From: a virus
Virus record (IMG/VR): IMGVR_UViG_3300046171_000284
Span: 1-64,000 of that record
Strand: one strand, 5' to 3'
DNA: 64,000 bases
Position numbers and translations under genes: made by a program. Positions 26,395 through 45,200 of this stretch are shown here, in pieces. Each line of letters begins with the position of its first letter. Positions within the stretch are counted from its first letter, which is position 1. The notes under the pieces are model-generated. The model worked only from the letters and a program-made list of their open reading frames with translations, did not search any database and was not told the DNA's origin.

Positions 26395-26673
26395 ATGAAT
26401 AGTGATATAACTAAACAAGCAGTAAGAATCGCCAACGGAATTGAAGTTCTCAGTAAAAAAGAACTCAACGCAATCTTAGGTAAATTCATACTATTAACAC
26501 TTGATCCATACGAAGTTAAGTCAGCGATCAAAGAAGTTGCACAAGAAGAGTTCAAAAAAGAACACGGAAAAGTTGCAAAATCTTGGGTCGACCTAGCCGA
26601 CAACATGGCAGAAAATACTGATGCTTCATTCGCAAGCGAAGTACTCAATTCACTGTGGCTCCAAAGAGCATAA
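26395..26673 (+). CDS. Small helical cytosolic protein
   Basis: 92 residues, predicted helical throughout (IEVLSKKELNAILGKFILLT, AQEEFKKEHGKVAKSWVDLA). No known family. It uses the A-rich codons typical of the cassette and precedes the long gene-free stretch, to which it may be unrelated. Confidence 0.55.
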   Translation: MNSDITKQAVRIANGIEVLSKKELNAILGKFILLTLDPYEVKSAIKEVAQEEFKKEHGKVAKSWVDLADNMAENTDASFASEVLNSLWLQRA

Positions 26674-27241
26674 CCAAACCATAAAGGAGTTAGTCACGGC
26701 AATGCCGTGCAACACTTTCACTTTCCAAAGGGATTGATCATCCTAGAGGAGGAACAGACGCTCGTAAACAAGTCGTACAGAGGGCTTGCGAGCACAAGAA
26801 CTATCATTCCTAGCGGAAGGGCTTAAACCTCAAATGAGGAGGAGTCAGTGAGACATTCACTTATAGTTGGTAATCAGAAAATATACAGTATTGCACCATA
26901 ATGCCTTGAGCAAGACGATGGTCTGCACTGAGATGTAATCACAATGTCCATATGGATTCAGGATTATAATCTAAGTTCTTAGCGGAACACAGTGGGTACA
27001 ACTGTAGGCATAAACAATTGAACTTTTAAAAGTTCTGTCGGTTGTTACAGGTAAGCTCAGAGATGAGTTGTCCTGTCAGAATCCCTAGAGGATCTGTCGC
27101 ATAATATCGGTTGTTTTCTGATTTGTGGTATACATTCCACCTGTTCCAAACTTTCGGTTCATCTAAACCAAAAAACAGACTGATTCATACAAATACTCGT
27201 ATGGGTAGGGTAGGCGATTCTGCCCATACGAGACACTTTCT
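26674..27241 (+). ncRNA. Candidate structured RNA, gene-free 568 nt
   Basis: No convincing coding frame is present. Base composition is visibly richer in G and C than the genes around it. Several hairpins are seen: CACGGC-AAT-GCCGTG (26695-26709), GCTCG/CGAGC (26760-26792), the palindrome GAACTTTTAAAAGTTC (27020-27035), a nested stem from ACAGG to CCTGT (27047-27076), and CTCGTATGGG/CCCATACGAG (27196-27232) ending 10 bases before the next ATG. Large structured RNAs such as ROOL and GOLLD are known from phages; I cannot assign this to either. A long leader is the alternative. Confidence 0.45.
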
Positions 27242-27963
27242 ATGCAAAATACAAATAACAAAAAACTATTTGTTCTAATTGTAAAAGAAATGGGTCGTTG
27301 GAAAACACTAGGGATTTTCGACAACTTAAAATCTATAAAGTTAGAACAAAGCAACATCCAAAATATATGCGAAATAATACAAACTCGTACAGTCCAACAG
27401 CGACACCTCTCCAAATTCTTGGAGAACTCGATGGTTCCAACTTGGGATCACAACCTAAAAATAAGAAACCGGTTGTTCGGAGGTGCAGATTGGAAAAATC
27501 AAATGTATTCTTCAAAGACCAAAGGTTCGGACTCCTAACAGGATTAACAGTAGCAAGTAAAATACTACAGCATCATCTAGTATTTACATCGTCAAAATTC
27601 GGCGGAACTTGGAAAGAACCCGGTGAATCTACTATCACAATCAAAATCGGAAAATGGATTGATGAAGGTAAGCTTCCAACAATTGTAGCAAATACAGGCG
27701 TTGCAGATGCCGGAGTACAAGTACAAAAAGGATCTAGATTAGTAAATCTAGACACCGTACGAACAATGTTATTAAATCTCGAAAATTGGGATTTAAAACT
27801 AAATGTACCTAATTGGGAAAAACATAAAGTACAACGAGGCAAAAGAAAGCATAAAGCTAAAGAGCATAACGAAATATTAGTCTACAGTAACGATGTCGAT
27901 GTTCTTACAAAAGAACATTGGATTATTAGATTAATAAAATTCTTCTTGCCTTGGACAAAATAA
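27242..27963 (+). CDS. Unknown protein, probable single-base frameshift
   Basis: The first frame from ATG 27242 (LFVLIVKEMGRWKTLGIFDN, NICEIIQ) reads well to about 27380; the -1 frame then reads well (TPLQILGELDG, RFGLLTGLTVASK) to 27963. One added A near CAAACTCG (27380-27388) would give one protein of 240 residues. The C-terminal end is hydrophobic (WIIRLIKFFLPW) and preceded by a basic stretch, so it may touch the membrane. No family recognised. Two overlapping separate genes are the alternative. Confidence 0.5.
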
Positions 27964-27965
27964 TC

Positions 27966-28046
27966 ATGGCTTGGGATATAATAATTATTCTTTTTCCAAT
28001 GTTACTAATGTTTTGGTTCGTATGGAAAATCGGACAAATCGAATAA
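27966..28046 (+). CDS. Single-span membrane micropeptide (26 aa)
   Basis: ATG 27966 follows the previous stop by two bases. The product MAWDIIIILFPMLLMFWFVW plus a short KIGQIE tail is almost all one membrane helix. Such micropeptides occur in phages as holin-like or regulator proteins; the function here is unknown. Confidence 0.5.
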   Translation: MAWDIIIILFPMLLMFWFVWKIGQIE

Positions 28047-28076
28047 ATTTCTCGATAACCGTAACAATAACGCCTT

Positions 28077-28096
28077 ATGTACAATATCTTGTACAT
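28077..28096 (+). promoter_or_regulatory. Perfect hairpin before the Ubl gene
   Basis: ATGTACAA-TATC-TTGTACAT is a perfect 8-bp inverted repeat with a 4-base loop, ending 23 bases before the Ubl ATG. It could be an operator or an mRNA hairpin near the 5' end of the Ubl transcript. Confidence 0.5.
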
Positions 28097-28119
28097 GCTA
28101 GCTCTTGGAGAAATCTAAC

Positions 28120-28332
28120 ATGACTGTTACTTTTCAATCAGGTGTCGCACAAATCACTCGTGATTTCGACGCAGGTACTACCTTGGGTCAAGCTTTGGAA
28201 GTCGTCCGTCCCGCACTCAATGTTGGTACTGTTTCCGCAGTATCCAACGGAGTTGAGATCGGACAAGGCGACGCAATTGATGGTTTCAACCATATTCAAT
28301 TGCACGCCCAAAGCCACTCTAAGGCTGTATAA
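28120..28332 (+). CDS. Ubiquitin-like (ThiS/PRTRC-C-like) beta-grasp protein candidate
   Basis: 70 residues from ATG 28120, with GGAG ten bases upstream. The order beta (VTFQSGVAQITRDF), TTLGQALEVVRPAL helix, VSAVSNGVEIGQGDAIDG and a final IQLHAQ strand is that of ThiS/MoaD-like and PRTRC-C-like beta-grasp proteins. It ends SHSKAV, without a terminal GlyGly, so it may need trimming or be used unprocessed. Its codons (GGT, CGT, ATC, GTC-rich) and composition are unlike the A-rich neighbours and suggest high expression. It precedes E2-, E1- and JAMM-like genes, which is the strongest reason for the call. Confidence 0.65.
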   Translation: MTVTFQSGVAQITRDFDAGTTLGQALEVVRPALNVGTVSAVSNGVEIGQGDAIDGFNHIQLHAQSHSKAV

Positions 28333-28505
28333 GCGTTAAATAAGAACTATCATTAGTAGTTCAACTGACCTCAATAAGAGGAACCACACTGCTTACTAAA
28401 TCATAATATACAAGCAATCGGGTCTAAGTACTTGAACCCGCGAAATCAATACCTGAACCATCCTACATTATAGACAATGTAGATCATGATCAGACAACCA
28501 AATTT

Positions 28506-28552
28506 GAGCTAGCTATGGAGACTAAACCCTCCGTAGCTAGCTCTTTTTTTTT
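28506..28552 (+). terminator. Strong intrinsic terminator after the Ubl gene
   Basis: A 15-bp stem (GAGCTAGCTATGGAG and CTCCGTAGCTAGCTC, one wobble), 8-base loop and nine T residues. The 173 bases between the Ubl stop and this stem also hold hairpins at 28419-28440 and 28463-28482, a structured 3' UTR or a small RNA. Confidence 0.9.
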
Positions 28553-28582
28553 CAACCTAAATCATAATAAAACAAATCAAAT

Positions 28583-29407
28583 ATGACATATCATAATAAA
28601 GAAAAATATATAATCCAAGGTGACAACATCATCTTGGAAACAACAACCAAACAAATCGTATTAAATACAAGACTACAAGATGTAGTATTCGATCCAACAA
28701 ATCGATTCTCAATAGATTCATCACTAAAAATGAATCCAATTACATCGCTGTCACAAGACAATTCAATCAGATACTTCGACTCAAACGAAATTCTATACAA
28801 AGTATCCAACATTGGTCAAAAAATATCGTTCAATTCACACGGAACACTGGCAAGTAACAACAGATGGACCCCAAGCTTCAGTTCACAATCCACAGATCCT
28901 CTATGGAAATGGGTAATAAAATCACGCTTCTCAACAACACCGGGATCAAACACAGGAATACTCAGAACATCATTCATATTAATTGAAATGTACAAAAAAG
29001 ATAGCGGACAGATACATTTAATGAATGGTAAACTCCTGTATGCAGAAGTAGACGACAAAGATTCAACTATCATCCATACTTTCGCACCACCGTTTCCAAA
29101 TGTATACGAAAACGGTCTGATATGCCTTGGTAGTCTAATCGAAACCGATGATTCAAAATTAGATCTACAAAATCCTAAAGTAATGACAGCAAAAATAATG
29201 TCAGACGGATGGAATCAAGATCTATACAGACCACAATATAATTGGGTAGAAAAAGGTGAATTAACACAAGAATTCACCTTACCGACTAATTTAAAAGACT
29301 CCAAAATAACTCATGGATTCTTAAGAACAACAGATAAAAACGATCTGACACTAGTCACCCCAATGTTACACACAAACATTCTAAATGTATTCGGAGATCA
29401 ATACTAA
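28583..29407 (+). CDS. E2-like (PRTRC-B-like) conjugating protein
   Basis: 274 residues. PFPNVYENGLICLGS carries the E2 active-site box with exact spacing: FPN in place of HPN, then seven residues, then the candidate catalytic Cys181 followed by Leu. About 40 residues before it, LYAEVDDKD and the Pro-rich APPFPN match the E2 strand and hairpin. The N-terminal 90 residues are specific to this protein. PRTRC-B proteins have a similar E2-like core at mid-length. It would accept the Ubl from the E1-like enzyme encoded at 29721. The stop overlaps the next start. Confidence 0.75.
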   Translation: MTYHNKEKYIIQGDNIILETTTKQIVLNTRLQDVVFDPTNRFSIDSSLKMNPITSLSQDNSIRYFDSNEILYKVSNIGQKISFNSHGTLASNNRWTPSFSSQSTDPLWKWVIKSRFSTTPGSNTGILRTSFILIEMYKKDSGQIHLMNGKLLYAEVDDKDSTIIHTFAPPFPNVYENGLICLGSLIETDDSKLDLQNPKVMTAKIMSDGWNQDLYRPQYNWVEKGELTQEFTLPTNLKDSKITHGFLRTTDKNDLTLVTPMLHTNILNVFGDQY

Positions 29408-29721
29408 TGGACTTAGAAAGTAAAATAATAACTGAAATAGAAAAAGCAGAAGACGACAATAAACTACTGTTTTTCAGATCAGGAATAGGTCAACACTTCA
29501 AAAACATCAACGCTTGTTATGCAGTGTTGCTAATCAGACTATCACAACATCATAACTCAGTAGCAAGAATGTTAGTAGAAACTAAATCTGTCGATCAACC
29601 AATACACAAAGATGACCCACTTATTGTACTCATGAAAAGTATAGAAATAAAACTTGATGAAATAGAAACAGACTTAAAAAACGCACTAATATTCGCAAAA
29701 AAATTAAATAAAGAAAACTAA
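29407..29721 (+). CDS. Helical protein between E2- and E1-like genes
   Basis: 104 residues, all helical in appearance (IITEIEKAEDDNKLLF, IEIKLDEIETDLKNALIF). It is joined to the genes on both sides by ATG overlaps, so it is probably made with them. No family recognised. It may be an adaptor or substrate of the Ubl system. Confidence 0.6.
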   Translation: MDLESKIITEIEKAEDDNKLLFFRSGIGQHFKNINACYAVLLIRLSQHHNSVARMLVETKSVDQPIHKDDPLIVLMKSIEIKLDEIETDLKNALIFAKKLNKEN

Positions 29722-30401
29722 TGAAAATTAATATCATCGGACTCGGAGGAGTCGGCTTAAAAATACTCAGAGAATTAGTAGAATCTAACTTCGCCATTAC
29801 AAGCATGAAGCTTTGGGATGGAGATGTAATAGAAGCACGCAACTTAGAGCGTCAAATCTACAGAACTGACCATATTGGCATGTCAAAATCAGAAGCATCA
29901 AAAGACATGTACTGCAAAGAAAATGTTGTTGGATTTCCATGCGAAACATTCGGCGACATAAATCTAATTACTCTTAGAGAAAATCAAAAAAATATCTGCA
30001 ATGATGATGTTACATTCATCGCTACAGATAACAATGAATCAAGAGTATTACTACTCAACAATTGGAAAATAATGTCAAAAAACCATGTGCTAATCAGTTC
30101 AGCGAATGCTACAGCAGACGAAGGAATTGGCATTGGTTCAACCGCATGGATCTACATGAAAGAATGGTACAACGATCCAATCAAAGACCCGATCATTAGA
30201 AACAATTTAGAATCTAATAATCATGTCAATATCGGCAGACCATGCTCAGAAACAAGCGAACCGCAAACAGCATTAGCTAACAGCGGTGCGTCTATCCGTG
30301 CAGTCGAACTACTATCACTATGGAAACATGCAAGCAGTACTTCAATTGCTGACCATCTACCAATTGAACACTCACTATTCTACAAACAAACAACTATCTA
30401 A
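29721..30401 (+). CDS. ThiF/E1-like Ubl-activating enzyme
   Basis: 226 residues, near the length of minimal ThiF/PRTRC ThiF enzymes. IIGLGGVGLKIL is the nucleotide-binding loop; LWDGDVIEARNLERQIY gives the conserved Asp and the NL-RQ adenylation motif; IATDNNESRVLLL is the second Asp region. The segment GRPCSETSEPQTALANSG has a Cys (about 178) in the place expected for a thioester Cys or a zinc ligand. No rhodanese or separate Ubl-fold domain is present. It would adenylate the Ubl C-terminus and pass it to the E2-like protein. Confidence 0.85.
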   Translation: MKINIIGLGGVGLKILRELVESNFAITSMKLWDGDVIEARNLERQIYRTDHIGMSKSEASKDMYCKENVVGFPCETFGDINLITLRENQKNICNDDVTFIATDNNESRVLLLNNWKIMSKNHVLISSANATADEGIGIGSTAWIYMKEWYNDPIKDPIIRNNLESNNHVNIGRPCSETSEPQTALANSGASIRAVELLSLWKHASSTSIADHLPIEHSLFYKQTTI

Positions 30402-30402
30402 T

Positions 30403-31215
30403 ATGACCAAAACTAATTATATAATACCTAATTGGTACTACATTATAAAATCAAATAAAACACTTAACAGAGTATTCGAAAACTCAATAGAAAATCCAAA
30501 CTCAAGTGCAGTAAAAGCAATACTGTTCAATAACTTTTCAGTACCAATGTCTGAAAAATTTGAATGTATTACTGATATTTTCAAATCAGTAATGTTGCAC
30601 TGCAAACAAAGTGATAAAAATAAATCAAGTGCGTATCATCCTACACACTTCCACCAAACTAATAATCATCCTTACTTTTGGAGAAATACCAACACAAAAA
30701 CTATCAAAAATGGAACAATTAATACAAATGGAGACGGATTAACAGTAACACAAAGAATGTGGAGCCTGCCTGACATACAACTCGATGACTTCACTGCAAG
30801 AAGAACAGAATTATGGAGTGCATATAAAACAATAGAAGAATATGCAGGTAACGATGAAGGATGCGTATCAACAGAAGCAATGATTCGTTGTTTAGTAGAT
30901 TTAGAAAGAAATGACGGAGAAATGACAGACAGCAATGTAGATAATCTTTTAGATCAGCTAACAGCAGAATGTGCTGATCATTGTGACTATGAAGAAACAG
31001 ACTACGATTACGAAGATAGAGATCATGAAGATACAACAGATTCATCTTGGTCATCATACAACAACGGAACTCTATCAAATATATTACATCGACTGAACAC
31101 ACTGTCACCTGAACAAAAAGCTACAGTAGAAGAATACATCCGATATCTAAACAATGAAGAAACTCACATAACACTAGATTACATCATTCAAAAATTAACT
31201 CCAATATCTCTATGA
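30403..31215 (+). CDS. Unknown acidic protein in the Ubl cassette
   Basis: ATG 30403 follows the E1-like stop by one base; an upstream in-frame extension inside the E1-like gene is rejected. 270 residues: a mixed N-terminal domain, His/Asn-rich middle (HPTHFHQTNNHP), then a strongly acidic C-terminal region (ETDYDYEDRDHEDTTD) and a final helical pair. It overlaps the JAMM gene start as ATGA. Not recognised; it could be the substrate or a scaffold. Confidence 0.6.
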   Translation: MTKTNYIIPNWYYIIKSNKTLNRVFENSIENPNSSAVKAILFNNFSVPMSEKFECITDIFKSVMLHCKQSDKNKSSAYHPTHFHQTNNHPYFWRNTNTKTIKNGTINTNGDGLTVTQRMWSLPDIQLDDFTARRTELWSAYKTIEEYAGNDEGCVSTEAMIRCLVDLERNDGEMTDSNVDNLLDQLTAECADHCDYEETDYDYEDRDHEDTTDSSWSSYNNGTLSNILHRLNTLSPEQKATVEEYIRYLNNEETHITLDYIIQKLTPISL

Positions 31216-32330
31216 AAACAATCATACATAAAAATAAAGTATTCCAAGAAGTAGAAACTGATTTCTACTCATCATGGAAAGAAACAATAGTGCCTGAAAA
31301 AGCACCACGACTCAGTTGGAAAAAAGCAAAAATAACTCTAGATCAATGGAACGACATCAAGAACATTTGCGAATACACCAATAACAAACACAGCTCAGAA
31401 TGCTTAATCAGATTATACTTCAACTGCCAAAAAGACGAATGGGCAATGCTCATGCATCCTCAAGAAATGAATGGCATGACTGTTGATGATGACCTAGACA
31501 CCGACTTAATACTATCATTAGGTGAAGGTTGGGCAGAAGCAGGTAGTGTACACCATCACTGTAGCTCAGGTGCATTTCAATCATCAACAGATGAATCAGA
31601 TGAAATGCAAGCATCAGGACTACACATTACTATTGGTAAAATTGGATCTGATGAATACGAAATAGATGCACGATTCAGAGAAGGTGAATCATTCACAACT
31701 CCCAATCTATCTACATTCTTCGAAGTACCTAATTGGTTAGTCAATGATGTGCCGGATAAATTCCAATATGAAATATTCGAATACTTACTGTGCTCAAAAG
31801 GTAATAGTGATTTAGCAAAAGGTGATTGGATTGCACAATGCAAAGAAAAACCAAAATTAAATACAGTACACTCATACTCTCAAAGAGCAAGATACAGTGC
31901 ATACGGTAAAAGCTCTTATCAAGTTACGCCCTACACTAACCACACAATACATAAAATACCTGACGCTGATCAAAAAGAACTATCATTAAATGATGCGACA
32001 GAATTAGATGATTATGAACACGCACAAATGATTAAAGATGCTTGGAATGAACAAGAAAAAAAGATGTTCAATGTTATTGAAGATGTAGCATTACAGTATG
32101 ATCTCGGTACTTGCGATGTACTCAGCATAATCGACGATCCTCTAAAAGAAATGGACGGTATATTAGTCAAAGCGTGGCAAGACATAAGAATGTTGGTAAA
32201 AGATACACCAATGAATCTAACTGAAATAAGAAAGTTCATATCTAATGATCAAGACGATGTAGAACTAGTGCTTACAGTTGCACATGAATACAGTCCATAT
32301 AACTACGGAACAACATATCCAATTGTCTAA
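31212..32330 (+). CDS. JAMM/MPN+ (JAB) deconjugating metallopeptidase
   Basis: 372 residues. The JAMM signature HxHx7SxxD is exact in HHHCSSGAFQSSTD: His114, His116, Ser124 and Asp127. An upstream Glu in the segment before GSVHHH is expected as the fourth catalytic residue. Downstream HITIGKIGSDEYEIDARF is the central strand pair of PRTRC-A-type JAB domains. The C-terminal 150 residues are an additional unknown domain. With E1-, E2- and Ubl-like genes it completes a conjugation-deconjugation cycle, or it could trim the Ubl precursor. Confidence 0.85.
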   Translation: MKTIIHKNKVFQEVETDFYSSWKETIVPEKAPRLSWKKAKITLDQWNDIKNICEYTNNKHSSECLIRLYFNCQKDEWAMLMHPQEMNGMTVDDDLDTDLILSLGEGWAEAGSVHHHCSSGAFQSSTDESDEMQASGLHITIGKIGSDEYEIDARFREGESFTTPNLSTFFEVPNWLVNDVPDKFQYEIFEYLLCSKGNSDLAKGDWIAQCKEKPKLNTVHSYSQRARYSAYGKSSYQVTPYTNHTIHKIPDADQKELSLNDATELDDYEHAQMIKDAWNEQEKKMFNVIEDVALQYDLGTCDVLSIIDDPLKEMDGILVKAWQDIRMLVKDTPMNLTEIRKFISNDQDDVELVLTVAHEYSPYNYGTTYPIV

Positions 32331-32397
32331 TCAACTAAACAAAAACGAGAAACAAACACTCCGTACTGCGTTACGCAGACACGAAACGGAAACAATG

Positions 32398-32429
32398 CGA
32401 AAGACCAAGCCAAAAAGCTTGGTCTTTCG
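32398..32429 (+). terminator. 13-bp perfect hairpin after JAMM gene
   Basis: CGAAAGACCAAGC and GCTTGGTCTTTCG with a six-base loop, followed by TATTCTTAAC. A CTGCG-TTA-CGCAG hairpin lies just before it (32367-32379). Shape fits a terminator, although the U run is weak. Confidence 0.6.
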
Positions 32430-32471
32430 TATTCTTAACAACATTAAAGAAATAAAATTCAAACTTAAATT

Positions 32472-32774
32472 ATGAAATATAAAATATATTATACAGCACA
32501 TATGTGTGATCATGTATATGTCGAAGCAGAATCTAGAGATGACGCACGAGACTTAGGACATGACATGGCAAACTCAGAACATCCTGAATCAGCTCATATA
32601 GACATTGATGATGTAATATCAGAAGATGATGAAGCAACCAACTCAACCCACAACTATCATGACTCAGCTACTGTAGACTACGATGGTGATGTTCTCGATG
32701 AAGATCTAGATGCTGATGATGTATTTGAAGCACAGCATTCAAAATCACCAACTATAGAATATGAAAAAATATAA
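32472..32774 (+). CDS. DpnD/PcfM-like acidic protein (100 aa)
   Basis: The N-terminus MKYKIYYTAHMCDHVYVEAE followed by SRDDARDLGHDM has the strand-VEAESxxEA-helix pattern of the small DpnD/PcfM-like fold. The C-terminal half is very acidic, with many Asp. It overlaps a second, related gene that starts at 32761. Confidence 0.55.
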   Translation: MKYKIYYTAHMCDHVYVEAESRDDARDLGHDMANSEHPESAHIDIDDVISEDDEATNSTHNYHDSATVDYDGDVLDEDLDADDVFEAQHSKSPTIEYEKI

Positions 32775-32937
32775 AGTAACATTCTTAGCAATAACTGAGC
32801 GTAACTACGAAGTTGATGCAGAAAACTTTGAAGAAGCAAAAGAATTTGCATCTACTGATTTAGAAAATGATATCGAAGTAAGTAATGCGTGGAAATCAGA
32901 CGCAAGAATAGTAGATGTCGAAGAGCAAAATAACTAA
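32761..32937 (+). CDS. DpnD/PcfM-like small protein (58 aa)
   Basis: MKKYKVTFLAITERNYEVDA and ENFEEAKEFA mirror the N-terminus of the previous gene, so the two are probably a tandem duplication. The start overlaps the previous stop by 14 bases. It ends directly before a strong terminator and is the last gene of the cassette. Confidence 0.6.
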   Translation: MKKYKVTFLAITERNYEVDAENFEEAKEFASTDLENDIEVSNAWKSDARIVDVEEQNN

Positions 32938-32940
32938 ACA

Positions 32941-32979
32941 AAATAGGTACAGATGTTAACAGCATTTGTACCTATTTTT
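32941..32979 (+). terminator. Intrinsic terminator closing the accessory cassette
   Basis: AAATAGGTACA and TGTACCTATTT form an 11-bp stem with a 15-base loop; the 3' arm runs into TTTTT and GTG. It follows the last cassette gene by three bases. Confidence 0.85.
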
Positions 32980-33008
32980 GTGCTACGACATCACTCATTC
33001 GCGTTGGG

Positions 33009-33126
33009 CTACTATCATCCCTATTGCCCACAAACTTGTCGCCATCTCTCACTCAACACACCTCGGTCGGTCGGGTGTGAGCCAATAGTTTTATTTAACC
33101 CCCTTCTCTTTTACTTGGTATTTGTA
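33009..33126 (+). promoter_or_regulatory. Regulatory unit before 33126 gene, repeat of 25907 unit
   Basis: CTACTATCAT (33009-33018) and the CCCCCTTCTC leader (33099-33126) have the same spacing as at 25907-26025. The leader runs right up to the ATG. Between them lies the left arm of a long inverted repeat (33023-33088). Confidence 0.5.
33023..33088 (+). repeat. Inverted repeat, left arm
   Basis: Two blocks, GCCCACAAACTTGTCGCCAT to CTCTCAC, and CACCTCGGTCGGTCGGGTGT to CCAATAG, recur as reverse complement at 33953-34071, on the other side of the gene 33126..33749. The right copy has about 50 more bases between the two blocks. Confidence 0.8.
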
Positions 33127-33749
33127 TGAATACATTAGTACAATATATCGATCTGATTAAGGCTGTTTTACATGCCTTAGTTCAGTCACCACTAGTTAGC
33201 GAAGATGACAGCAAATACGGATCAGACCGATTCCATACAGCTGAATACTCTGCATACGGCAAGGACGAAGAGGGTAACACCGTGATCAAACATGTCGTTC
33301 GCGCTCAGATCAACGGGGTTAAAGCAAGATTCTATTGCAATACTTCGGATCGTTGGGAAGCTTGCGTCAAGGCTCTTGCCCGAAGAACGGTTACGATCAG
33401 TAATCCAACACTATCATTAACAACACCTGCGTATGGTGATCAGGCTCAAATGTCCGAATTTATCGGTGCTTTCAATGCCGTAATAAATACGCATGGTAAG
33501 GGTTTTCGTGCGTCTCTCAGGGATGAGGATGATACGGATTGGCTTGATTTTCCTGAAGCTCAGGACATGATGCTTGATGAGAATGTTCAAACAAGTACCA
33601 CTGATTACTTGGGAATGATCGCAAATCCGAATGCTCAGGCACAGCCCCAAACGCAAACTGCTCCGACTCCGAATGTTGCACCTCAAGCAATACCTCAGCC
33701 GGTTCCTGTTCAGCCTGCCCATGACGCAGTGCCGAATGTCTTCGCTTAA
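33126..33749 (+). CDS. Unknown protein flanked by inverted repeats
   Basis: 207 residues. Residues 1-150 are mixed alpha/beta; the last 45 are Pro/Gln-rich with repeated AQPQTQ and PQPVPVQP. No signal peptide is visible and no family is recognised. Composition is more balanced than in the accessory cassette before it. The gene has its own regulatory unit and terminator, and long inverted repeats on either side, so it behaves as an independent unit. Confidence 0.65.
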   Translation: MNTLVQYIDLIKAVLHALVQSPLVSEDDSKYGSDRFHTAEYSAYGKDEEGNTVIKHVVRAQINGVKARFYCNTSDRWEACVKALARRTVTISNPTLSLTTPAYGDQAQMSEFIGAFNAVINTHGKGFRASLRDEDDTDWLDFPEAQDMMLDENVQTSTTDYLGMIANPNAQAQPQTQTAPTPNVAPQAIPQPVPVQPAHDAVPNVFA

Positions 33750-33761
33750 TTATTAACAATA

Positions 33762-33800
33762 AATAGTCCGTGATCCGTATGGTGATCGGACTATTTTTTT
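33762..33800 (+). terminator. Intrinsic terminator after 33126 gene
   Basis: AATAGTCCG and CGGACTATT form the outer stem, with nested TGATC elements and a run of seven T residues. Confidence 0.85.
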
Positions 33801-33952
33801 GCCCCGACATCACGAATCGAACCCGTTCGCCAACCTGTTTGGGGAAAGGGGAACGCACGCGTGCGCGAGACAATAGATTTTATGTCTAGTGCAGTTGCGT
33901 ACCAATACGCTGTACACCAACGACTTATGGATTACCTTATGAAATTGGGTCA

Positions 33953-34071
33953 CTATTGGCTCACACCCGACCGACCGAGGTGAGTTGTATCGAGGAAATA
34001 TGGGAATATCTAGCGATACCCCCATATCCCCCCGATACCGTGAGAGATGGCGACGAGTTTGTGGGCGATAA
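33953..34071 (-). repeat. Inverted repeat, right arm
   Basis: Reverse complement of 33023-33088: CTATTGGCTCACACCCGACC from 33953 and GTGAGAGATGGCGACGAGTT from 34040. Between them is an added hairpin, ATATGGG with CCCATAT. The rest of the gene-free 33801-34191 stretch holds only a CACGCGTGCG tract and no clear coding frame. Confidence 0.8.
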
Positions 34072-34191
34072 TGAGAAAATAAACAGTCCCCTGCCCCCAC
34101 CACCGGGGGTAACCAAAAACAATAAACCGTCGTACTAGGTATCCTTTTACAAACGATATACACTACAAAATTTTTAAGCTATTCTTGCCGT

Positions 34192-34599
34192 ATGGTACAA
34201 GCTGTAGCAGACACTACTGTCGCATCCAAAAAACTGAAAAGAGACATTTCGGACTTTTTGGTGGATGATGACATTGAAAAAGCACTTTTAACACTAAGGG
34301 AAGGTCTAAAAGCGACTAAAACTAATCGCTATAGAGATCCTAAAAACCCAAAAGGTATACAATATGGCGAAAAAGCAGACCACACAGTCAGATATCACTC
34401 AGCAAAACTGTTATTGGAGTACGGATTTGGCAAACCTGCCACTAGAGCGGAGATTAGTATTACCGATGAAACAAAAAGAACCGCTTCTCCTGACGAAATT
34501 ATCAAGAAAATTCAAAATTCTGCCCACTCTTTTAAGGAAATTGCTGATACTTATGTACATTCCCTTCCAAATGCCGATCTGAGCGAAAACGATGAGTAA
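34192..34599 (+). CDS. Putative small terminase subunit
   Basis: 135 residues, first gene of the packaging block. The N-terminal half is helical and basic; residues 60-90 (TVRYHSAKLLLEYGFGKPA) resemble small terminase or related DNA-binding proteins of marine phages. It is followed by short coupled genes and then the large terminase. The call depends mainly on position. Confidence 0.5.
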   Translation: MVQAVADTTVASKKLKRDISDFLVDDDIEKALLTLREGLKATKTNRYRDPKNPKGIQYGEKADHTVRYHSAKLLLEYGFGKPATRAEISITDETKRTASPDEIIKKIQNSAHSFKEIADTYVHSLPNADLSENDE

Positions 34600-34789
34600 A
34601 TCTAAAGAAGTAGCACCCGCCGAGCAGTTTTTTAACGAATTATATGGTTGTTTTCTCCGTTGGTGGGAAGAATCTGATCTTGAAGAGGACGACATGGTGT
34701 CGATTGCCAATAATGTAATAGAACGCTTCACCGAAGCAGGGGTAGAATTTGATTCAGACATAGATCTGAGCGATGTGGAGGATGAGTAA
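34592..34789 (+). CDS. Small acidic protein (65 aa)
   Basis: ATG 34592 overlaps the previous stop. Strongly acidic (SDLEEDDMVS, DIDLSDVEDE), with one amphipathic helix in the first third. No family. It is coupled to packaging genes on both sides. Confidence 0.6.
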   Translation: MSKSKEVAPAEQFFNELYGCFLRWWEESDLEEDDMVSIANNVIERFTEAGVEFDSDIDLSDVEDE

Positions 34790-34926
34790 TGCCGGCAAAA
34801 AAGAAAAAATCTAGCAAAAAAGACCCCTGTTGGAAGGGGTATAAAGCAATCGGTATGAAAAGTAAGGGCGGTAGAAAAGTCCCTAATTGCGTACCTAACA
34901 AATCAAAAGGAAGGAGTAAACGATGA
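34789..34926 (+). CDS. Small basic protein with DPCWKGY motif (45 aa)
   Basis: TAATG overlap at the start and ATGA overlap at the end. The core DPCWKGYKAIGMKSKGGRKV, then PNCVPN, is a recurrent small phage protein motif found near packaging and portal genes. Role unknown; the basic charge suggests DNA contact. Confidence 0.65.
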   Translation: MPAKKKKSSKKDPCWKGYKAIGMKSKGGRKVPNCVPNKSKGRSKR

Positions 34927-34985
34927 CTCATTGCGGAACTAGAAGAAAAAAGAAAACCAAGAAGAAAAAAGGTTATGGCAAGTAA
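34923..34985 (+). CDS. Lys-rich micropeptide (20 aa)
   Basis: The coupled short frame MTHCGTRRKKKTKKKKGYGK sits between two family-like genes and overlaps both. It is basic enough to bind DNA. It may be only a coupling leader for the next gene. Confidence 0.4.
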   Translation: MTHCGTRRKKKTKKKKGYGK

Positions 34986-35247
34986 GAGAAAACCTAGTAA
35001 CCCGATTCGGAAGACCACCAAGGGTAAAGGTGCAAACTACCGCCCCACTAAGAGCGGTGCAGGTATGACTGCAAAAGGGGTAAAAGCTTACCGAAAAAAG
35101 AACCCCGGATCTAAGCTAAAAACTGCGGTTACAGGCAAGGTAAAGCCGGGAAGTAAGTCCGCTAAACGAAGAAAAGCATTCTGCGCTAGGTCTAAGAGTT
35201 GGAATGGTGAGCGTGGAAAAGCCGCGCGTAGAAGGTGGAAATGCTGA
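34975..35247 (+). CDS. DUF6321-like basic phage protein
   Basis: 90 residues. GAGMTAKGVKAYRKKNPGSK, KTAVTGK, SAKRRKAFCARS and the Trp-Lys-Cys ending match a small basic phage protein family that I know as DUF6321. Found near terminase and portal genes in many marine phages; function is unknown, probably DNA-associated in the virion. Confidence 0.75.
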   Translation: MASKRKPSNPIRKTTKGKGANYRPTKSGAGMTAKGVKAYRKKNPGSKLKTAVTGKVKPGSKSAKRRKAFCARSKSWNGERGKAARRRWKC

Positions 35248-35342
35248 TGTACGGACTATCTACAATTAAATTTATGAACACTCCTGAGCAGATCGCCAAA
35301 AGACGGGCTCTTGCTAGGAGGATGAATCGTGTCAGACGCTGA
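35247..35342 (+). CDS. Small basic peptide before terminase (31 aa)
   Basis: Starts at ATG overlapping the previous stop and overlaps the terminase start by 14 bases. Product MYGLSTIKFMNTPEQIAKRR plus a basic tail. The AGGAGG serving the terminase lies inside this frame, so it may mainly couple translation. Confidence 0.4.
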   Translation: MYGLSTIKFMNTPEQIAKRRALARRMNRVRR

Positions 35343-37083
35343 ACAGCTTCAAGACCTAATCAGGGTAGACCCTGAGCTTTGGTTTACGACCTTTGCCGTA
35401 ATCAAGGATAAACGGGGCAAGACAATTAGCCCAAAAGCCAACACCTTACAAAAAAGGATGTTTGCACATTACCGAAAATGCCAAATCGAACAAAAACCGT
35501 GCAAGATGATAATATTAAAGCCTCGTCAAAAGGGAGCAAGCACTTGCGCCCAAGCACTGACATACCACCACATGAGGAAGCACCCCGACCTAGCGGGGTC
35601 GCTGATGGGGGACATATCGGGGACGAGCGACAAAGTATTCGAGATTTATCGGAGATACGCAGAGAACGACAGCTTTCCTTGGGACGATACAGGAACAAAC
35701 CACGAAAATGGGGGAAACCTCGTAGATCAGATTACCCTAACAAGCAAAAGTGTGTATGGAAAAGAGACCGCCGGATCAAAAAACGCGGGTCGAAGTGGGA
35801 CAGTTCAAGTTGGTAATATGACTGAGGTTGCGTTTTGGACAATGCAAGGTGAAAGAGACCCTGCACTTGGCTATTTGCAATCTTTATACGATGGGGACAA
35901 TGTATCATTAGTTGTAGCCGACTCCACTCCAAATGGTCCCGTTGGATGGTTTTACCGCACATGGGTACAGGATAACGAATGGGCTAAGATATTTGCCTCA
36001 TGGTGGGAGTTTGAGGATTCCGAGATACCTTTTGTTTCTGATGAACAGCTTCAGGATTTTAAGGATACTTTAACTGCCGATGAGATATCCGAGATGGAAA
36101 GATTTGATGTCACATGGGAGCAGATGCATTGGAGAAGACGCACTCTTCAGGACAAATGCAATGGTGATGTAGCTAAGTTTAGACAGGAATACCCGTCAGA
36201 TCCCGAAGAATGTTTCCTTATGTCATCCCGCCCACGCTTTCATGTGGAAAATATTAAAGCCATGCTCGATTCCTCGAAGAAGCAGACTCCTCAAATCGGT
36301 GTCATGACATTTCAAGACGAGTCAAGAAAGGTCGCTAGTTTCCTACCCGACCGTGGCGGTCTGTGGAAAGTTTACGAAGAACCTGAATATGACTCAAAAT
36401 ACTTGATTTCTGTGGATACATGCACAGGTGAAGATCAACAGACTCAGGGATTAGCCTCTGATCCTGATTGGCACAGTGCACAGGTATGGAAAGCACCCTA
36501 TGAAGATTGGCATGGCAATTGGCATGTTGCCAAATTAGTTGCCGTACACCATAGCCGATTGGATATTGGTGTGTTAGCTGAGGAAGTTGCATCCGCATCT
36601 GCGTGGTATGGCAAAGCATTTACCGTCCCCGAAGTCAATAATTCGGGATTAGCCTTAGTTAAGTACCTATTGGACTTGGGCGTACCTGTATATCGTAGGA
36701 GAAAAACGATTGATTCTATGGGAATTGTGGAAAAGAGCTTCGGTTGGACGACTGACAAATTGACCCGAAAAACGATAATAGACCATTTAGCTTCGGAAAT
36801 TATCGAATTTAATGTGGATATCCCTGATGAAGGCATCATGCAAGAGTTGAAAACCTTTGTCATAAATGAGAAGGGTAAGCCTGAAGGTGCTCCCGGTCAT
36901 CATGACGATCATGTATTGGCATGTGCCATTGCAGTTTACAATATTGACAGTGCATCTTCGTACAAGATGCCAAAAAAGAAACGGATTACTAATCGTATGC
37001 TTCGAAAGAACCCAAGTTTGATGTGTCCTGATGGATTTATGCGTGTCCCATTAAAGGAGTACATGCGTAATAAGCGTAGGTAG
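35329..37083 (+). CDS. terL: Terminase large subunit
   Basis: Starts at GTG 35329, seven bases after AGGAGG, the strongest Shine-Dalgarno of the window. 584 residues. ATPase: Walker A LKPRQKGAST (64-72) and Walker B-like VGNMTEVAFW, with a C-motif region after it. RNase H-like nuclease: ISVDTCTGED (first Asp) and GHHDDHVLA (third Asp cluster). It packages and cuts the genome at the portal encoded at 55871. The nuclease motifs are intact. Confidence 0.92.
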   Translation: MSDAEQLQDLIRVDPELWFTTFAVIKDKRGKTISPKANTLQKRMFAHYRKCQIEQKPCKMIILKPRQKGASTCAQALTYHHMRKHPDLAGSLMGDISGTSDKVFEIYRRYAENDSFPWDDTGTNHENGGNLVDQITLTSKSVYGKETAGSKNAGRSGTVQVGNMTEVAFWTMQGERDPALGYLQSLYDGDNVSLVVADSTPNGPVGWFYRTWVQDNEWAKIFASWWEFEDSEIPFVSDEQLQDFKDTLTADEISEMERFDVTWEQMHWRRRTLQDKCNGDVAKFRQEYPSDPEECFLMSSRPRFHVENIKAMLDSSKKQTPQIGVMTFQDESRKVASFLPDRGGLWKVYEEPEYDSKYLISVDTCTGEDQQTQGLASDPDWHSAQVWKAPYEDWHGNWHVAKLVAVHHSRLDIGVLAEEVASASAWYGKAFTVPEVNNSGLALVKYLLDLGVPVYRRRKTIDSMGIVEKSFGWTTDKLTRKTIIDHLASEIIEFNVDIPDEGIMQELKTFVINEKGKPEGAPGHHDDHVLACAIAVYNIDSASSYKMPKKKRITNRMLRKNPSLMCPDGFMRVPLKEYMRNKRR

Positions 37084-39218: not shown

Positions 39219-42200
39219 ATGTCACTTTTCGAAGAAGAGGTGTTCCGTGATCCCTTAGCCAAGGGCGATGATAAAGTTTTCGATCTTGGTTTTGATCTTG
39301 GCGACCCTCCTAAAAACACTTACGGCATAGGACAGCCTCAACAGCCCCAAATAGGTGAATATGAACCTACATACGATCCTGTAGAAGGACCACAGCCTGA
39401 CCCTGCCAACGAGCCCGTTTATCGGGACTATTTAGCTTTTAAGGATAATTTAGGCAGAGTTGGTTCCGAGCTTACTGATTTTAATTACCGTAGTTCGTCC
39501 TCCAACAAAAGGTATGATTCTTTCTTTGATGAGAAACTACCCTCGATTTACTCTGACCTTACGGGCTATGAAATGCCTGATAATGTCAGTAAAGCAAATC
39601 GTAAGACCTTATTAGAAGACCTAGAAAATCAGTATTCTGATGCCGAAAGAAAAGTCTTAAAAGGTAATGAGAATTTCCTTGGATTAGGTGAAGATGAAGC
39701 ATTCGAACAGGCTAAAGCATTTGCCACACCTGAGCGTAAAAAGCTCATTGGCAGTTTAAGAAAAGAGCATGACAGACTAGAGCTTGAACGCGACGAATAT
39801 GCTCGGAGAGCATATGAGAAAAGAATGGAAAGAGACCGTATGCTTGAGCAAAGGTCGCAGGTTCCACATATTATCCGTGCTGAAGCAGAGGAATGGGCTA
39901 AGCGTGAGCGTAGTTTACTAGCATCAGGTACTAAAAAGAACAAACTTTCATATGAGCAGATCCAACAAAAGCTAGATGCCCGATACCGTTCGGTTGATCC
40001 GTTTGGCGGTATGCTTGACAAGTCTGAACTTAGTTCCTCTGAGCGTGTTGAAGCTAGAAAAGCGTTAGAACTACTATCATGGTCTAAGAAAGAGACTGAT
40101 TCCTTTAGAGGTCAGGGCGGGATTGTTTCCAATAATGGATTCGTGAACGGTTATCCTGTTGGTTTAACGGGTGCTGAGAGGGAGGCTTTGGAGGTTGCCG
40201 ACCTTAGAAAAGCAGGGATTACCACTTACAAAGGCAAACCGATTGAGGAAGCCTTGGAAGCCCTTGGCGGTCAGGAAAAAGTTGAGGCTTTAACAGCTAT
40301 TTCTAGTACCCTGAAGCTACACACTGCATACACAAACGCAGGTGTTGAGTTATGGAGTAAATGGAATCAGGAAGGACACGAAGAAAGACAGGCTGAGTAT
40401 GATATGGCACAATCCGCAGTCCAACGGGCGTTGGGTAACGCGGGTGCGATGGGTCTTACAAATGACATAGTTAGACGAAACCCTTCTGCTTGGTGGTTTG
40501 ACCACATGTTAAATGCATCTAAGCGTGGATGGGATCGCACTGACGGCACTCCCCGAAACATTGCTCGTATCATAGCAGGTGACGGAGGTATTGACCGATC
40601 CGCATTATCTAAAGTTGTAGAAGCATCTCAGCTTGAAAGACAGAGTCCACGATCTAAGGACTACGATAATTACATGAACGCCCTTCACAACAAGGGTGGT
40701 TCCAAAGGTTTTTACGATGCTTTCTTAACATTGACTGACGATAAGCAATGGAAGGGCAGTGCGATGACCGTGCTGACCGAAATGATGGTCGAATCTCTTG
40801 CCTCATTAATTCCATTAGTTGCGAACAACATTAAGGATGCAGGTATCCCTGTTCTTGGTGCGTCTCTTCTTGAATCATTTTTAACCAAAAAACCAAATAA
40901 AACGCTTTTAAAAATACTCGGCAGAAATGCCGGACTCGCGATAAAGGGTTCGTATGGTGTCGCATCTTTTCAATTAGGATACATTGGTAAGCTCTTGGAG
41001 GACATGAGCGAATTGGGAGTTGATATAAACAACCCCGATCACATGTTATCTGCATGGAATAACCCCGAAATTAATGAGAGACTGCGTAGACGGGCTCGAA
41101 ATTATGCGGGTGGCTTAGCGTTCTTTGAAATGTTGGGTGTGGGCTTAATGGGTCGTGCTAGTAAACTGCTCAATGGTCCCACGAAGTTCTTAGGCAAGAC
41201 AAGTCTTGGTAAGTATGCACTTGCCCCTGCTATCAAATCCACTGCCGAACTAGGCTTGGACATGGGTACAGGTATGGCATCTGAATATGCAGGTTTTGTC
41301 CTATCAAAAGACCCCGGTGAAAAGACTCCATACGATGACATTCTCATAGAAGGCGCGGCTGAATTAGGACCCGGTATTGTATCCACAGGCATAAACTTCG
41401 CCACTCCTCAGCTTGGGGATATGTGGAAGTCTAGCACCCCTAGAAAACCACAGGATATTGTTGATGATGGCACAGGCAATGAGACTCAGGTTCTAACCGA
41501 CCCCGTTTCTGACCCTAATCGTTCAGGTATCGTCACATCTACACAGACCTACAAAGGCATGGAGTTTGAAGCTACAAGCTATTCCAATCTTGAAGCTTTC
41601 GATGATAATTTCGTAACTGACATAAAAAACGCCACAGGTGTCGAGCTTGATGCCAACGACTCTCTTGCGGTTAAAGCTTTTGTAGCCAATGGAATATTTC
41701 GCCCTGACTCAGCTATTTCTCCTGACAAAGTCGATTTTTTCTTTGGCAGTCTGCCCGATCAAGCCCCCGGTCGCTACATTAATGAGGGTAACGGTCGTGT
41801 TCTAATCGCAATCGACCCTGTACGAGCAAAAGAGCTTGGATTTACAGTAGCAGAAACATTTATACATGAGGGCGGTCACTTCGCTGAGGATTTCATTCTT
41901 GGAGAGGGCGAGGTTCAGGGTTTTTGGGATGAACTTACTGACGAGCAAAAGAAAAGAAATGCATTAGAATATGCCACGCTTGCTCGCCCTGATGGACCTG
42001 CTACCGATGTCACTCAGTTAAATGAAAACGAAAAAGCAGTTTATGAGTATTTACTAGATAACGAAAAGAAAAACCGATCCGAATGGTTGACTCTTCAAAT
42101 TGCCCGTGTTCTTCGTGGCGATGTTGACAAAGAAGGTTTTCCTCCCGGTCTTTGGTCAGGTATTCAAAAAATAATCATGTTCTTCCGCTCATCTATCGAA

Positions 42201-45200
42201 AAGATGTTCGGATCTGAAGACCTTGCCCCTAATAGCAAAGAAGCAAAGGCTGAAATGGATCAGTACCTTTATGAGGTATTGATGGAAGGTAAAAAAGCTA
42301 GAAGTGGTACAGAAGCAGTAGCATCCCCTCAGCCAACAGCAACAGCCCCTGAGCCAACCATTATTTCGGACGGATTTGATGTCGATTCGGAGACAGGCGA
42401 TTTAACACCTGTTGACCCTACTAAACCCAATGAATCCGCTCGACAGCAAGGCATTAATATTACTAGGGAAGGTGACGAAGCAAAATTCTTACTCTCCCCT
42501 AGACAACAAGATGCGATCAAAGTTCGTATTAAAAGAGGGGAAGACCCTGAGAAAATAATAAAATGGGCGGTTAAAAATACTAAAAAGCCCGAAGGCGTGG
42601 TCAGATCCTATGTCGAATCGGTACTAAAAGAAGGCGGTATCCAAAAACCAAAAGGACCTGCCGTTGCCGAAAAACCGAAAAAAGCGTCTGACCCTAAGCC
42701 TGAGAGCGAGCCCGTACAATCTGAGCCCAAACCCAAAGCGGAACCCCAAGCTGAGACTGAGCCCCAAGCTGAGCCCCAAGCGGAGACACCCAAATTCAAA
42801 CCGCTCGGAGATGCTGAGAAAAGAGCAATAGCTAAGAATGTAAGGGAGGGCATGAAAAAAGGTCTTTCCCCCAAGAGTATTACTGACGATCTATTAAAAA
42901 AGGACACTAAAAATCAATACGACCCGAAAGAAGTCCGTGCCTATGTAATCAGAGTTGTAGATTACGATAAGAAAAAAGCATCAGAAACTCCCATCGCCCC
43001 TGACCCTCCGAAAGAAACTTTTAAACCGTTTACAGAAGAAACTAAAAAGAAACTAGCCCCTAGAATTAGGGATGGTATTAAAAAAGGTTTTTCCGCTAGT
43101 CAGATTGCCGATGTTTTTATTAAGCAGAATAAGGGCAAATATGACCCGAAGGAAATTAAGGCTTATATTCAAAGGGTCATAGATTACGACAAGAACAAAT
43201 CCGAGCCTAAGACCGAGCCCAAGCCCAAGCCCAAGCCCAAGCCCAAGCCCAAGGACGAAATTCCTGAAATCGCACCTGATGACCCTGAGTTTATAAGACT
43301 ATTTAAGCTTGAAGAGAAGGCTATCGAAGAGGCACGAGCAAATTATGATTTGTGGCAAGACGGAAAAATAACCGATGAGGAGATGGATGCGTCTCAGGCT
43401 AGAGCGAAAGAAGCAGAGAAAGCTACTTACGACTATATAATGTCGAAGAAAAATAAGCCTAAAGACGAAGGCGTAGATTTAGGTAAAGCCACAGTTAAGT
43501 TTACAAAAGCCGAGCTTCAGGAATTGGTTGATGGCGGTATGACTGTAGCCGAAGCCAAGAAAACACTTATAGCAAAGTATGCAAAAGACGCAAAGGTAAC
43601 AAAGACCGAGCCTAAGCCTAAGATTGACATACAGAAATTTTACGATCTTTACGATCAGGCATTCGTCAATGCCAATGCTCCTAGTTTCAGTAACGAGGGT
43701 AAGCTTTCAAAATCACAGGTCATTCAAAAAGTTCTCATGGATAATATTGAGAACATACCTGCGGAAGACTTTGCTTATGTCGAGCAAGCTTTAATCAAGC
43801 GTTCCCAACAAGGTCAGCAAGAATTTGATCTATCTGCACCCGGTACTATCATACCTACTTTAGGAGATAAAAAAGCTCAGCAAGTAAGAGGTTCAGTTCG
43901 TGGCGTACTAAACTTTTTAGAAGAGTTTAATGTATCCGTAGAAGAGGCAGACAATTTCTTAGTGGATCTATCCGCCAAGAAACTAGTAGTTAATTTCGAT
44001 CCTAAAAATGTAGATAAGTTATCTGACGCATTAGCACAGTCCGTAGCTACATTAATCTCAGGCACTGATCTGTACAGACAGTTTTCCTACGATGTTGTCG
44101 GCAGGGATGCCAAAAAGTCGAAAGCATTTTACGAAGAACAAACAAAAAGGTTTCAAAATTTTTACAAAGAAAACTTTTCTGACACTCCCTACAACGAGTG
44201 GATAACCACTAAAGACGCTAGAACCACATGGTATAATTTCGGTAGGCAAGTCTACAAAGACATGATTGTCGGCGTTTTAGGCGGTAACATATTGGAGAAA
44301 ATATCCAAGGATATTCAGTTACCAAAATCTTATATTCAAAAAATTAAGGATTTTGTAAAAGGTTTATTTTCCAAACTTTCAGGCGTAAATACTGAGGAAC
44401 TTTCCAAGTACTTAAGGGGTGTCACAAAAGATGCTTTTTTGGGAAATACTAGTCCTTACACAATCAAAGGTTCTCAGATCCGTAAGGACATATCTTACGA
44501 TAATATTTACAATACTGACTACGCCTTAAATGCGTTCAAACACGCGGGTGATGTAGTTAAGAAACTCACAAAGGATAGCAGATTTGCACTGACAGGTAGT
44601 TTAGCACTTGCCTCAAAAGGGCTCGTTTACCGACCTAAAGGCGAACCTGTCCACGACTTAGACTACGCATTTGATGGGTCGCAAGAAGAGTTAGTTAAGG
44701 CAATGGAGAAACTCTTACCCAATGCACTTCCCCGCCGTGCTTTTAAATCTAGTTCAGGAGTACTGAACGCACCTTACATCATCCCCGAAGAAGGATTCAG
44801 AGTTGAGGAAGTTTCGAATGGAAAGCTCAAATGGTACGACCTTAAGACAGGTAAAGAGGTTAAAAGCGGGGCTTATGTGACCTCCGATTTTTTCATTGGA
44901 GCGGTTACAGACGAGGAGACTTTTAACTATAATTGGAAAACTAGAAACGGTAGTTTAGTGCCAATTAAGTTTACTAGACCGGGAGTAATTTTCGATGCCA
45001 AACTTGGTTACTCCCGAAAGAAAGACATTTTTGATTATCAGCAGTACACCGAGGATAGGGATAAATTATTAAGTGCTAAAGACAGAGAAAACAAAGTCGG
45101 CAATCTTTTAAAAAGGTCTACCTTTTCCGACCTATCTGCCCCCGGCGGAACGCCCATACGAGAAGAATTCGGGGTAGGCGGTTTAGCTAACATAAGAGGG

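What the first reader, a model, noticed from the sequence alone, without database searches (positions are those of the whole stretch)
28120..32330. Phage-borne Ubl-E2-E1-JAMM gene set
Seen: adjacent plus-strand genes carry an E2 active-site box (FPN, seven residues, Cys181), a ThiF/E1 nucleotide loop with the NLERQ motif, and an exact JAMM HxHx7SxxD motif, preceded by a 70-residue beta-grasp-like protein. Known: PRTRC cassettes on plasmids carry Ubl-, E2-, JAB- and ThiF-type genes. Inference: this is a PRTRC-like protein-modification system carried by a phage, with two unrecognised partners (29407..29721, 30403..31215) and no visible ParB. It may tag virion or host proteins, or block host defence.
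Basis: partly seen in the sequence, partly recalled or inferred. Interest (0 to 1): 0.92.

Follow-up and report, generated by a model that had tools for sequence, protein, structure and literature searches.

The report
Phage ubiquitin-like protein-tagging gene set
This virus of bacteria carries its own miniature version of the ubiquitin tagging machinery (a tag, two enzymes to attach it, one to trim or remove it), and the same gene set, unlike any named system in the literature searched, turns up in about a hundred other uncultured phage sequences but almost never in bacterial genomes.

Summary
Window 28120-32330 encodes a beta-grasp Ubl, an E2-like protein, a ThiF/E1-like protein and a JAMM protease, plus two partner proteins. 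The Ubl is modelled with high confidence (pLDDT 89; Z 10.6 to ubiquitin). The same gene order, Ubl-E2-X-E1-(X270)-JAMM, recurs in at least 20 other viral contigs; 104 viral stretches encode a relative of its JAMM, against 4 in 84,980 prokaryote genomes, all on MAG contigs. Catalytic residues are invariant across the family. A sister phage with 80% identical virion proteins carries the cassette at 38-39% identity. Two features set it apart from PRTRC and Iyer 2006 type 6d operons: the Ubl ends in Lys-Ala (window ..HSKAV), not Lys-Gly, and the E2 has an invariant Asn-x-Asp where PRTRC E2s usually have a histidine. Extra residues of variable sequence, or a second Ubl, follow Lys-Ala in many members, which points to trimming there by the JAMM. 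It is a distinct, largely viral relative of PRTRC-type operons, not a PRTRC system: PRTRC models for Ubl and E2 do not hit, and those for JAMM and E1 fall far below cut-off. The biochemical class is well supported; target and role (most likely host manipulation or counter-defence) are inference.

The parts
28120..28332 (+). Ubl modifier (70 aa), beta-grasp; tail ..AQSHSKAV, predicted mature end Lys68-Ala69
   Evidence: Conserved at the head of the cassette in 15 loci and in sister phage L213 (38% identity, tail QTHSKAS); profile hits ubiquitin in PDB; AF2 pLDDT 89.3; VIA Z 10.6, rmsd 1.3, 66 aligned to 2zcb ubiquitin. Lys68 invariant in 25 sequences.
28506..28543 (+). intrinsic terminator (15-pair stem, 9 T) between Ubl and enzyme genes
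   Evidence: sequence
28583..29407 (+). E2-like conjugating protein (274 aa), Cys181; Asn211-x-Asp213 in place of the downstream His of PRTRC-type E2s
   Evidence: Prok-E2_D E=1.1e-4; N173, C181, N211, D213 invariant in 24 relatives; hhalign to PRTRC-type E2 94.7%, 6e-8; weak AF2 model whose best structural neighbours are mostly E2/UEV folds, Z up to 4.7
29407..29721 (+). small partner (104 aa), function unknown; a gene at this place is present in nearly all related cassettes
   Evidence: position; sequence not alignable to the others
29721..30401 (+). E1-like ThiF adenylyltransferase (226 aa), invariant Cys175
   Evidence: Pfam ThiF 9e-13; 16 invariant residues in 25 relatives including D33, D35, N41, R44, Q45, K56, D103, C175; profile hits NEDD8 E1 at 1.7e-15
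30403..31215 (+). partner X270 (270 aa): N-terminal module shared with the gene between ThiF and JAMM in L213, L106, L179, L099, L202; acidic C-terminal part
   Evidence: 14-21% identity; possible E3/adaptor role is inference
31212..32330 (+). JAMM/JAB metalloprotease (372 aa), Glu63, His114, His116, Ser124, Asp127
   Evidence: all five invariant in 21 relatives; 39% identity over 251 aa to sister-phage L213; hhalign to PRTRC-type JAB 98.2%, 3e-14; profile's weak PDB hits are Rpn11 and AMSH
32398..32429 (.). 14-pair stem downstream of the cassette; scored as a terminator on the minus strand

Best explanation
A phage-encoded ubiquitin-like conjugation and deconjugation cassette. The Ubl is made as a precursor; the JAMM protease trims it after Lys68-Ala69 (one residue, Val, in this phage). 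The ThiF-like E1 adenylates the new C-terminus and takes it onto Cys175, passes it to Cys181 of the E2-like protein, and the E2, perhaps aided by X270 and the 104-aa partner, joins it to proteins in the infected cell. The same JAMM can remove it. Because the cassette diverges faster than the replication and packaging proteins between sister phages and sits in unrelated phages, the target is most likely a host protein involved in defence or takeover rather than a conserved virion part. Shown by computation: homology, Ubl fold, invariant catalytic residues, gene order, viral distribution. Inferred: activity, processing site, targets, role.
For: Each enzyme keeps its full set of catalytic residues across a divergent family. 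The Ubl has a ubiquitin fold with a flexible tail. The tail Lys-Ala is fixed while what follows is not: of 75 distinct family Ubls, 51 end in KA or KA plus 1-2 residues (A, V, S, LA, SA, HG) and five more have 4-8 unrelated residues after KA (such as TEVLA, EPALVV, TAELAHA, NELELVAA); tandem Ubls are split by the same KA in L184, L106 and L231. That is what a protease-processed precursor predicts. A C-terminal Ala is chemically usable: CBASS cGAS from E. cloacae ends in Ala and is conjugated, and a Gly to Ala change lowers but does not abolish conjugation (PMC10097602). Six-gene order conserved in sister phage L213 at the same place before TerS/TerL. Viral distribution: 104 viral stretches versus 4 in 257 Gb of prokaryote genomes.
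Against: No experiment. The E2 fold is only weakly modelled (pLDDT 54, no significant Foldseek hit). The E1 is a single 226-aa adenylation domain. The Ala tail departs from nearly all free-standing Ubls. No target can be named. Fast divergence is shared with other genes of the phage pair, so it does not single out the cassette.
Confidence: 0.74

Rival explanations
1. Counter-defence or host takeover (the role favoured above, stated separately): the Ubl is attached to host proteins (immune sensors, proteases, polymerase) to block or redirect them.
For: Full reversible cascade in phages; cassette at 38-39% identity between sister phages while TerL and portal are 80-81% and replication proteins mostly 54-63%; presence in phages with unrelated packaging genes.
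Against: No target known; no early promoter shown; other genes of the pair diverge as much or more.
Confidence: 0.45
2. Virion or assembly function: the Ubl is put on phage structural proteins during morphogenesis, as lambda gpI/gpK (Ubl/JAB) are tail-assembly factors.
For: In the window and sister phage the cassette lies directly before TerS/TerL; lambdoid TAPI/TAPK precedent (PMC1779556).
Against: In many relatives the cassette is next to DNA polymerase A instead; no fixed structural neighbour; the lambdoid pair has no E1 or E2.
Confidence: 0.2
3. Competition: the cassette protects the infected or lysogenic cell from other phages, as BIL does by tagging tails of incoming phages.
For: BIL and CBASS use Ubl or cGAS with E1, E2 and JAB against phages (PMC11354881, PMC10097602); an integrase-like gene at 12002-13033 hints at possible lysogeny.
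Against: No BIL-type E2 CEHH motif or two-domain E1; no repressor identified; cassette is found on contigs with virion genes, hardly on host chromosomes.
Confidence: 0.2
4. Sulfur carrier: Ubl plus ThiF make a thiocarboxylate for nucleotide or cofactor thiolation, no protein tagging.
For: ThiF family and ThiS-like size; JAB also occurs in sulfur operons (PMC1779556).
Against: Dedicated E2 with invariant Cys in all relatives; tail is Lys-Ala, not Gly-Gly; no sulfurtransferase, rhodanese or base-modification gene found in the cassette.
Confidence: 0.08

Closest known systems
PRTRC system (TIGR03735-03738; Ubl C, E2 B, JAB A, ThiF, ParB) on plasmids
   Same: Ubl, Prok-E2_D-type E2, PRTRC_A-type JAMM and stand-alone ThiF encoded together; profile-profile links for E2 and JAMM; Lys as penultimate tail residue.
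   Different: No PRTRC_C or PRTRC_B hit; A and ThiF far under cut-off; Lys-Ala instead of GTKG tail; Asn-x-Asp instead of His in the E2; order Ubl-E2-X-ThiF-X270-JAMM instead of Ubl-F-E2-JAB-ThiF; no ParB beside it.
Iyer 2006 operon type 6d (Ub-like, JAB, E1-like, E2-like, alpha-helical protein), PMC1779556
   Same: Same four classes as separate genes; E2 without the upstream catalytic His.
   Different: 6d Ubl has a conserved C-terminal Gly and the E2 an absolutely conserved downstream His; both replaced here.
BIL (BilABCD)
   Same: Ubl precursor, E2, JAMM and E1; tandem Ubl in a few relatives; JAMM predicted to open the tail.
   Different: BilA opens to Gly; BilB has a C-E-H-H motif; BilD has inactive plus active adenylation domains (PMC11354881). 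None is present here.
Type II CBASS Cap2/Cap3 with cGAS
   Same: E1/E2/JAB logic; modifier may end in Ala (PMC10097602).
   Different: Modifier there is the cGAS enzyme, E1 and E2 are fused; here a free beta-grasp Ubl and separate enzymes.

Membership tests
PRTRC | Ubl matches PRTRC_C (TIGR03738) and ends in GTKG | tested here: not met
   No hit at E<=5; tail HSKAV; phage PRTRC Ubls in L036 and L044 hit above cut-off
PRTRC | E2 matches PRTRC_B (TIGR03737) | tested here: not met
   No hit; L036 and L031 E2 hit at 2e-33 and 6e-21
PRTRC | JAB matches PRTRC_A (TIGR03735) | tested here: not met
   14.5 bits versus cut-off 101.8; 20 of 21 relatives hit at E<=0.1, best 1.5e-8: distant kin
PRTRC | ThiF matches PRTRC_ThiF (TIGR03736) | tested here: not met
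   18.7 bits versus 144.75
PRTRC | ParB-family and proteins D, E, F beside the set | tested here: inconclusive
   None among the 9 genes scanned at 28120-33749; rest of the record not scanned for them
Iyer 6d operon | Ubl with conserved C-terminal glycine | tested here: not met
   Ala in the window and most relatives; Gly in a minority
Iyer 6d operon | E2 with Cys and absolutely conserved downstream His | tested here: not met
   N211-x-D213 invariant instead
Iyer 6d operon | E1-like and JAB genes together in one operon | tested here: met
   29721-30401 and 31212-32330, same strand, one gene between
E1/ThiF superfamily | ATP-binding loop, DxD, NLxRQ, Lys, Asp, catalytic Cys | tested here: met
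JAMM/MPN+ metalloproteases | Glu + HxHx7SxxD | tested here: met
   E63, H114, H116, S124, D127 invariant in 21
beta-grasp Ubl | ubiquitin-type fold with flexible tail | tested here: met
E2/UBC fold | four-strand meander, active Cys before a helix | tested here: inconclusive
   pLDDT 54; most of the 50 listed rows are E2 or UEV but Z 3.6-4.7 only
BIL | BilB CEHH motif (C, +6 E, +8 H, +13 H) and two-domain E1 | tested here: not met
   C181 is followed by LGSLIETDDSKLD, no such spacing of E/H/H; E1 is 226 aa; motif from PMC11354881
Type II CBASS | fused E2-E1 Cap2 | tested here: not met
   separate genes

The most novel reading that the evidence does not exclude
A widespread viral ubiquitin-like system, distinct from all named bacterial ones, in which phages mature an alanine-ended modifier with their own JAMM protease and conjugate it to host immune or regulatory proteins: a ubiquitination machine used by the virus against the bacterium.
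Probability: 0.35. Interest if true: 0.93.

Novelty: new variant of a known kind. Interest (0 to 1): 0.74.

Why it matters
Known bacterial ubiquitin-like pathways with tested function (CBASS Cap2, BIL) are defences against phages. A complete, reversible conjugation cascade carried mainly by phages would show the weapon also in the virus's hands, and would give small, separable proteins to test it. The natural Ala/Gly split in the modifier tail, even between phage relatives (window and L213 Ala; L261 Gly), makes the chemistry of the modifier end directly testable.

Tried and rejected
tblastn of the window's E1, E2 and JAMM against 50,697 phage records: no match; plasmids: one weak E1 hit, no E2. 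The search for related loci with single window proteins: nothing; degenerate DNA patterns of the E2 and JAMM boxes worked. Considered whether the Ubl was a chance ORF: rejected by synteny, conservation and fold. Considered plain PRTRC membership: rejected by the family models with positive controls. Sequence profile comparison of this Ubl with PRTRC_C Ubls gave no link beyond the tail (0.3%). First tree had three tail labels misread by my regular expression (L186, L169, L091 are Gly); corrected. Foldseek with the E2 model: no significant match. Literature searches for phage-encoded Ubl conjugation found no description; the library lacks most subscription papers and nearly all preprints, so an existing description cannot be excluded. 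Rfam: nothing in 26500-35400.

Full report
Setting. The window lies in an IMG/VR viral record of 70,907 bases. Its other genes are a phage's: DNA polymerase pieces, helicase, exonuclease, nucleotide kinase and an integrase-like protein, a terminase large subunit (35329-37083), an SU10-type portal (55871-57889) and a single ORF of 5551 aa with AAA/UvrD helicase motifs and an LPD38 large polyvalent-protein domain (39219-55874).

The observation. ThiF is over the Pfam cut-off (9e-13); the E2 matches Prok-E2_D just under the cut-off (22.5 of 25 bits), aligned across Cys181; the JAMM box is the only stretch matched by PRTRC_A. Shuffling residues within ORFs gives each motif at 0.0-0.11 per window. 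The Ubl has no family hit by itself.

Relatives. Direct protein searches failed. A degenerate DNA pattern for the E2 box found 85 viral contigs; the ORFs printed under the pattern all read as Prok-E2_D-like frames, many with JAB or ThiF beside them. Some are true PRTRC-type sets by NCBIfam (L036, L044). A pattern for the JAMM box found at least 119 contigs. Among these, 15 carry clear homologues of the window's Ubl (best E=9e-11), in the order Ubl-E2-small protein-ThiF-(second protein)-JAMM. A profile scan with the JAMM alignment confirmed 104 of 120 viral stretches, and only 4 of 42 in 84,980 prokaryote genomes; of those four, one (L209) is on a 19 kb contig full of phage genes and carries the same Ubl (SSKA) cassette. 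The two scans used slightly different peptide patterns, so the contrast is strong but not exact.

Conservation. ThiF: 16 invariant residues in 25 sequences, among them D33, D35, N41, R44, Q45, K56, D103 and C175. JAMM: E63, H114, H116, S124, D127 invariant in 21. E2: N173, C181, N211, D213 invariant in 24; in most PRTRC-type E2s a His stands where N-x-D is here, though some PFPNV-type phage E2s also have NxDL. These include the expected catalytic positions, in proteins otherwise 10-30% identical, so the enzymes appear to be under selection for activity.

The modifier. AlphaFold2 gives pLDDT 89.3 with a low-confidence tail; VIA-align Z is 10.6 to ubiquitin with 66 residues at 1.3 A. Lys68 is invariant in 25 sequences and is followed by Ala or Gly. 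Of 75 distinct Ubls picked up by a family profile, 51 have Lys-Ala at or within two residues of the end, 18 Lys-Gly, and five of the rest have Lys-Ala followed by 4-8 unrelated residues. Tandem Ubls in L184, L106 and L231 carry the same Lys-Ala at the inner junction. A fixed Lys-Ala with variable or no residues after it is the pattern of a precursor cut after Ala. In a ThiF tree the order Ubl..ThiF-JAMM and the Ala tail mark one side of a branch supported 99/93 (23 rows, 21 of them Ala; the other side is Gly but for one Ala row and one incomplete row), with three tail changes in all; the window's row has a long branch, so its exact place is unsure. Ala as the reactive end has precedent in CBASS (PMC10097602).

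Nearest phage. L213 lies in a 67,119-base contig. Its terminase is 81% and portal 80% identical to the window's, and it has a 6365-aa LPD38 ORF. It carries the complete cassette, with Ubl tail THSKAS, at 38% (Ubl), 39% (ThiF), 39% (JAMM) and 26% over 88 residues (E2); on a circular map of that contig it would lie next to TerS/TerL, as in the window. Replication proteins are mostly 54-63%. The two partners are not found by tblastn, but the X270 counterpart aligns at its N-terminal part. L261 (terminase 54%) has the same gene order with a Lys-Gly tail.

Expression. A 15-pair terminator with nine T lies between Ubl and E2 (28506-28543), and a second stem follows the JAMM. The Ubl may thus be transcribed apart from, and more strongly than, its enzymes; this is inference.

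Mechanism. Step 1, trimming by JAMM (inferred from tails). Step 2, adenylation and thioester on E1 Cys175 (inferred from invariant residues). Step 3, transfer to E2 Cys181 (same). Step 4, conjugation to lysines (inferred by homology to CBASS and BIL). Step 5, reversal by JAMM (inferred). Role: counter-defence or takeover is my first choice at about 0.45.

Membership. It works like PRTRC, Iyer 6d, BIL and Cap2 systems. It is not a member of any by the tests made: see the table. I file it as a new variant: a largely viral, mostly alanine-tailed Ubl-E2-E1-JAMM cassette.

Limits. No experiment; weak E2 model; no host; only openly licensed papers searched.

Noticed in passing
window 39219-55874 (+): Single ORF of 5551 aa with AAA_30/UvrD helicase motifs and LPD38 large-polyvalent-protein domain between terminase and portal; sister contig has a 6365-aa version.
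   Followed up: partly
L113, L137, L165, L187, L200 (Ubl ORFs, e.g. L113:3332-3838): Gly-tailed viral Ubls carry an N-terminal stretch (TVAELRQMCRDQDIPGMSKKRKDVIIDAIL) that looks like a SAP-type DNA-binding module; not checked with a family model.
   Followed up: no
L031:958-5507: A viral contig with a ParB-like gene followed by Ubl, helical protein, E2, JAB, ThiF: a near-complete PRTRC-like set in a phage contig.
   Followed up: partly
L115:7040-7435, L141:3218-3613, L193:3442-3822: A small protein that looks like a VRR-NUC-type nuclease directly follows the JAMM in many marine cassettes, with DNA polymerase A nearby in several; not checked with a family model.
   Followed up: no
window 12002-13033 (-): Tyrosine-integrase-like protein (phrog_1, 4e-8) close to the DNA polymerase genes; lysogeny or genome resolution unclear.
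   Followed up: no
window 32472-32937 (+): Two small adjacent proteins with similar N-termini, weakly like DpnD/PcfM and phrog_9642.
   Followed up: no
L211:3785-4240: Tandem Ubl with HDKG at both domain ends on a contig labelled Cloacimonadota MAG, gene order Ubl-X-JAMM-ThiF-E2.
   Followed up: partly
window 15938-17643 (-): DNA polymerase appears split into at least two overlapping ORFs (15938-16861 and 16789-17643 both match phrog_17); the split is not resolved.
   Followed up: no
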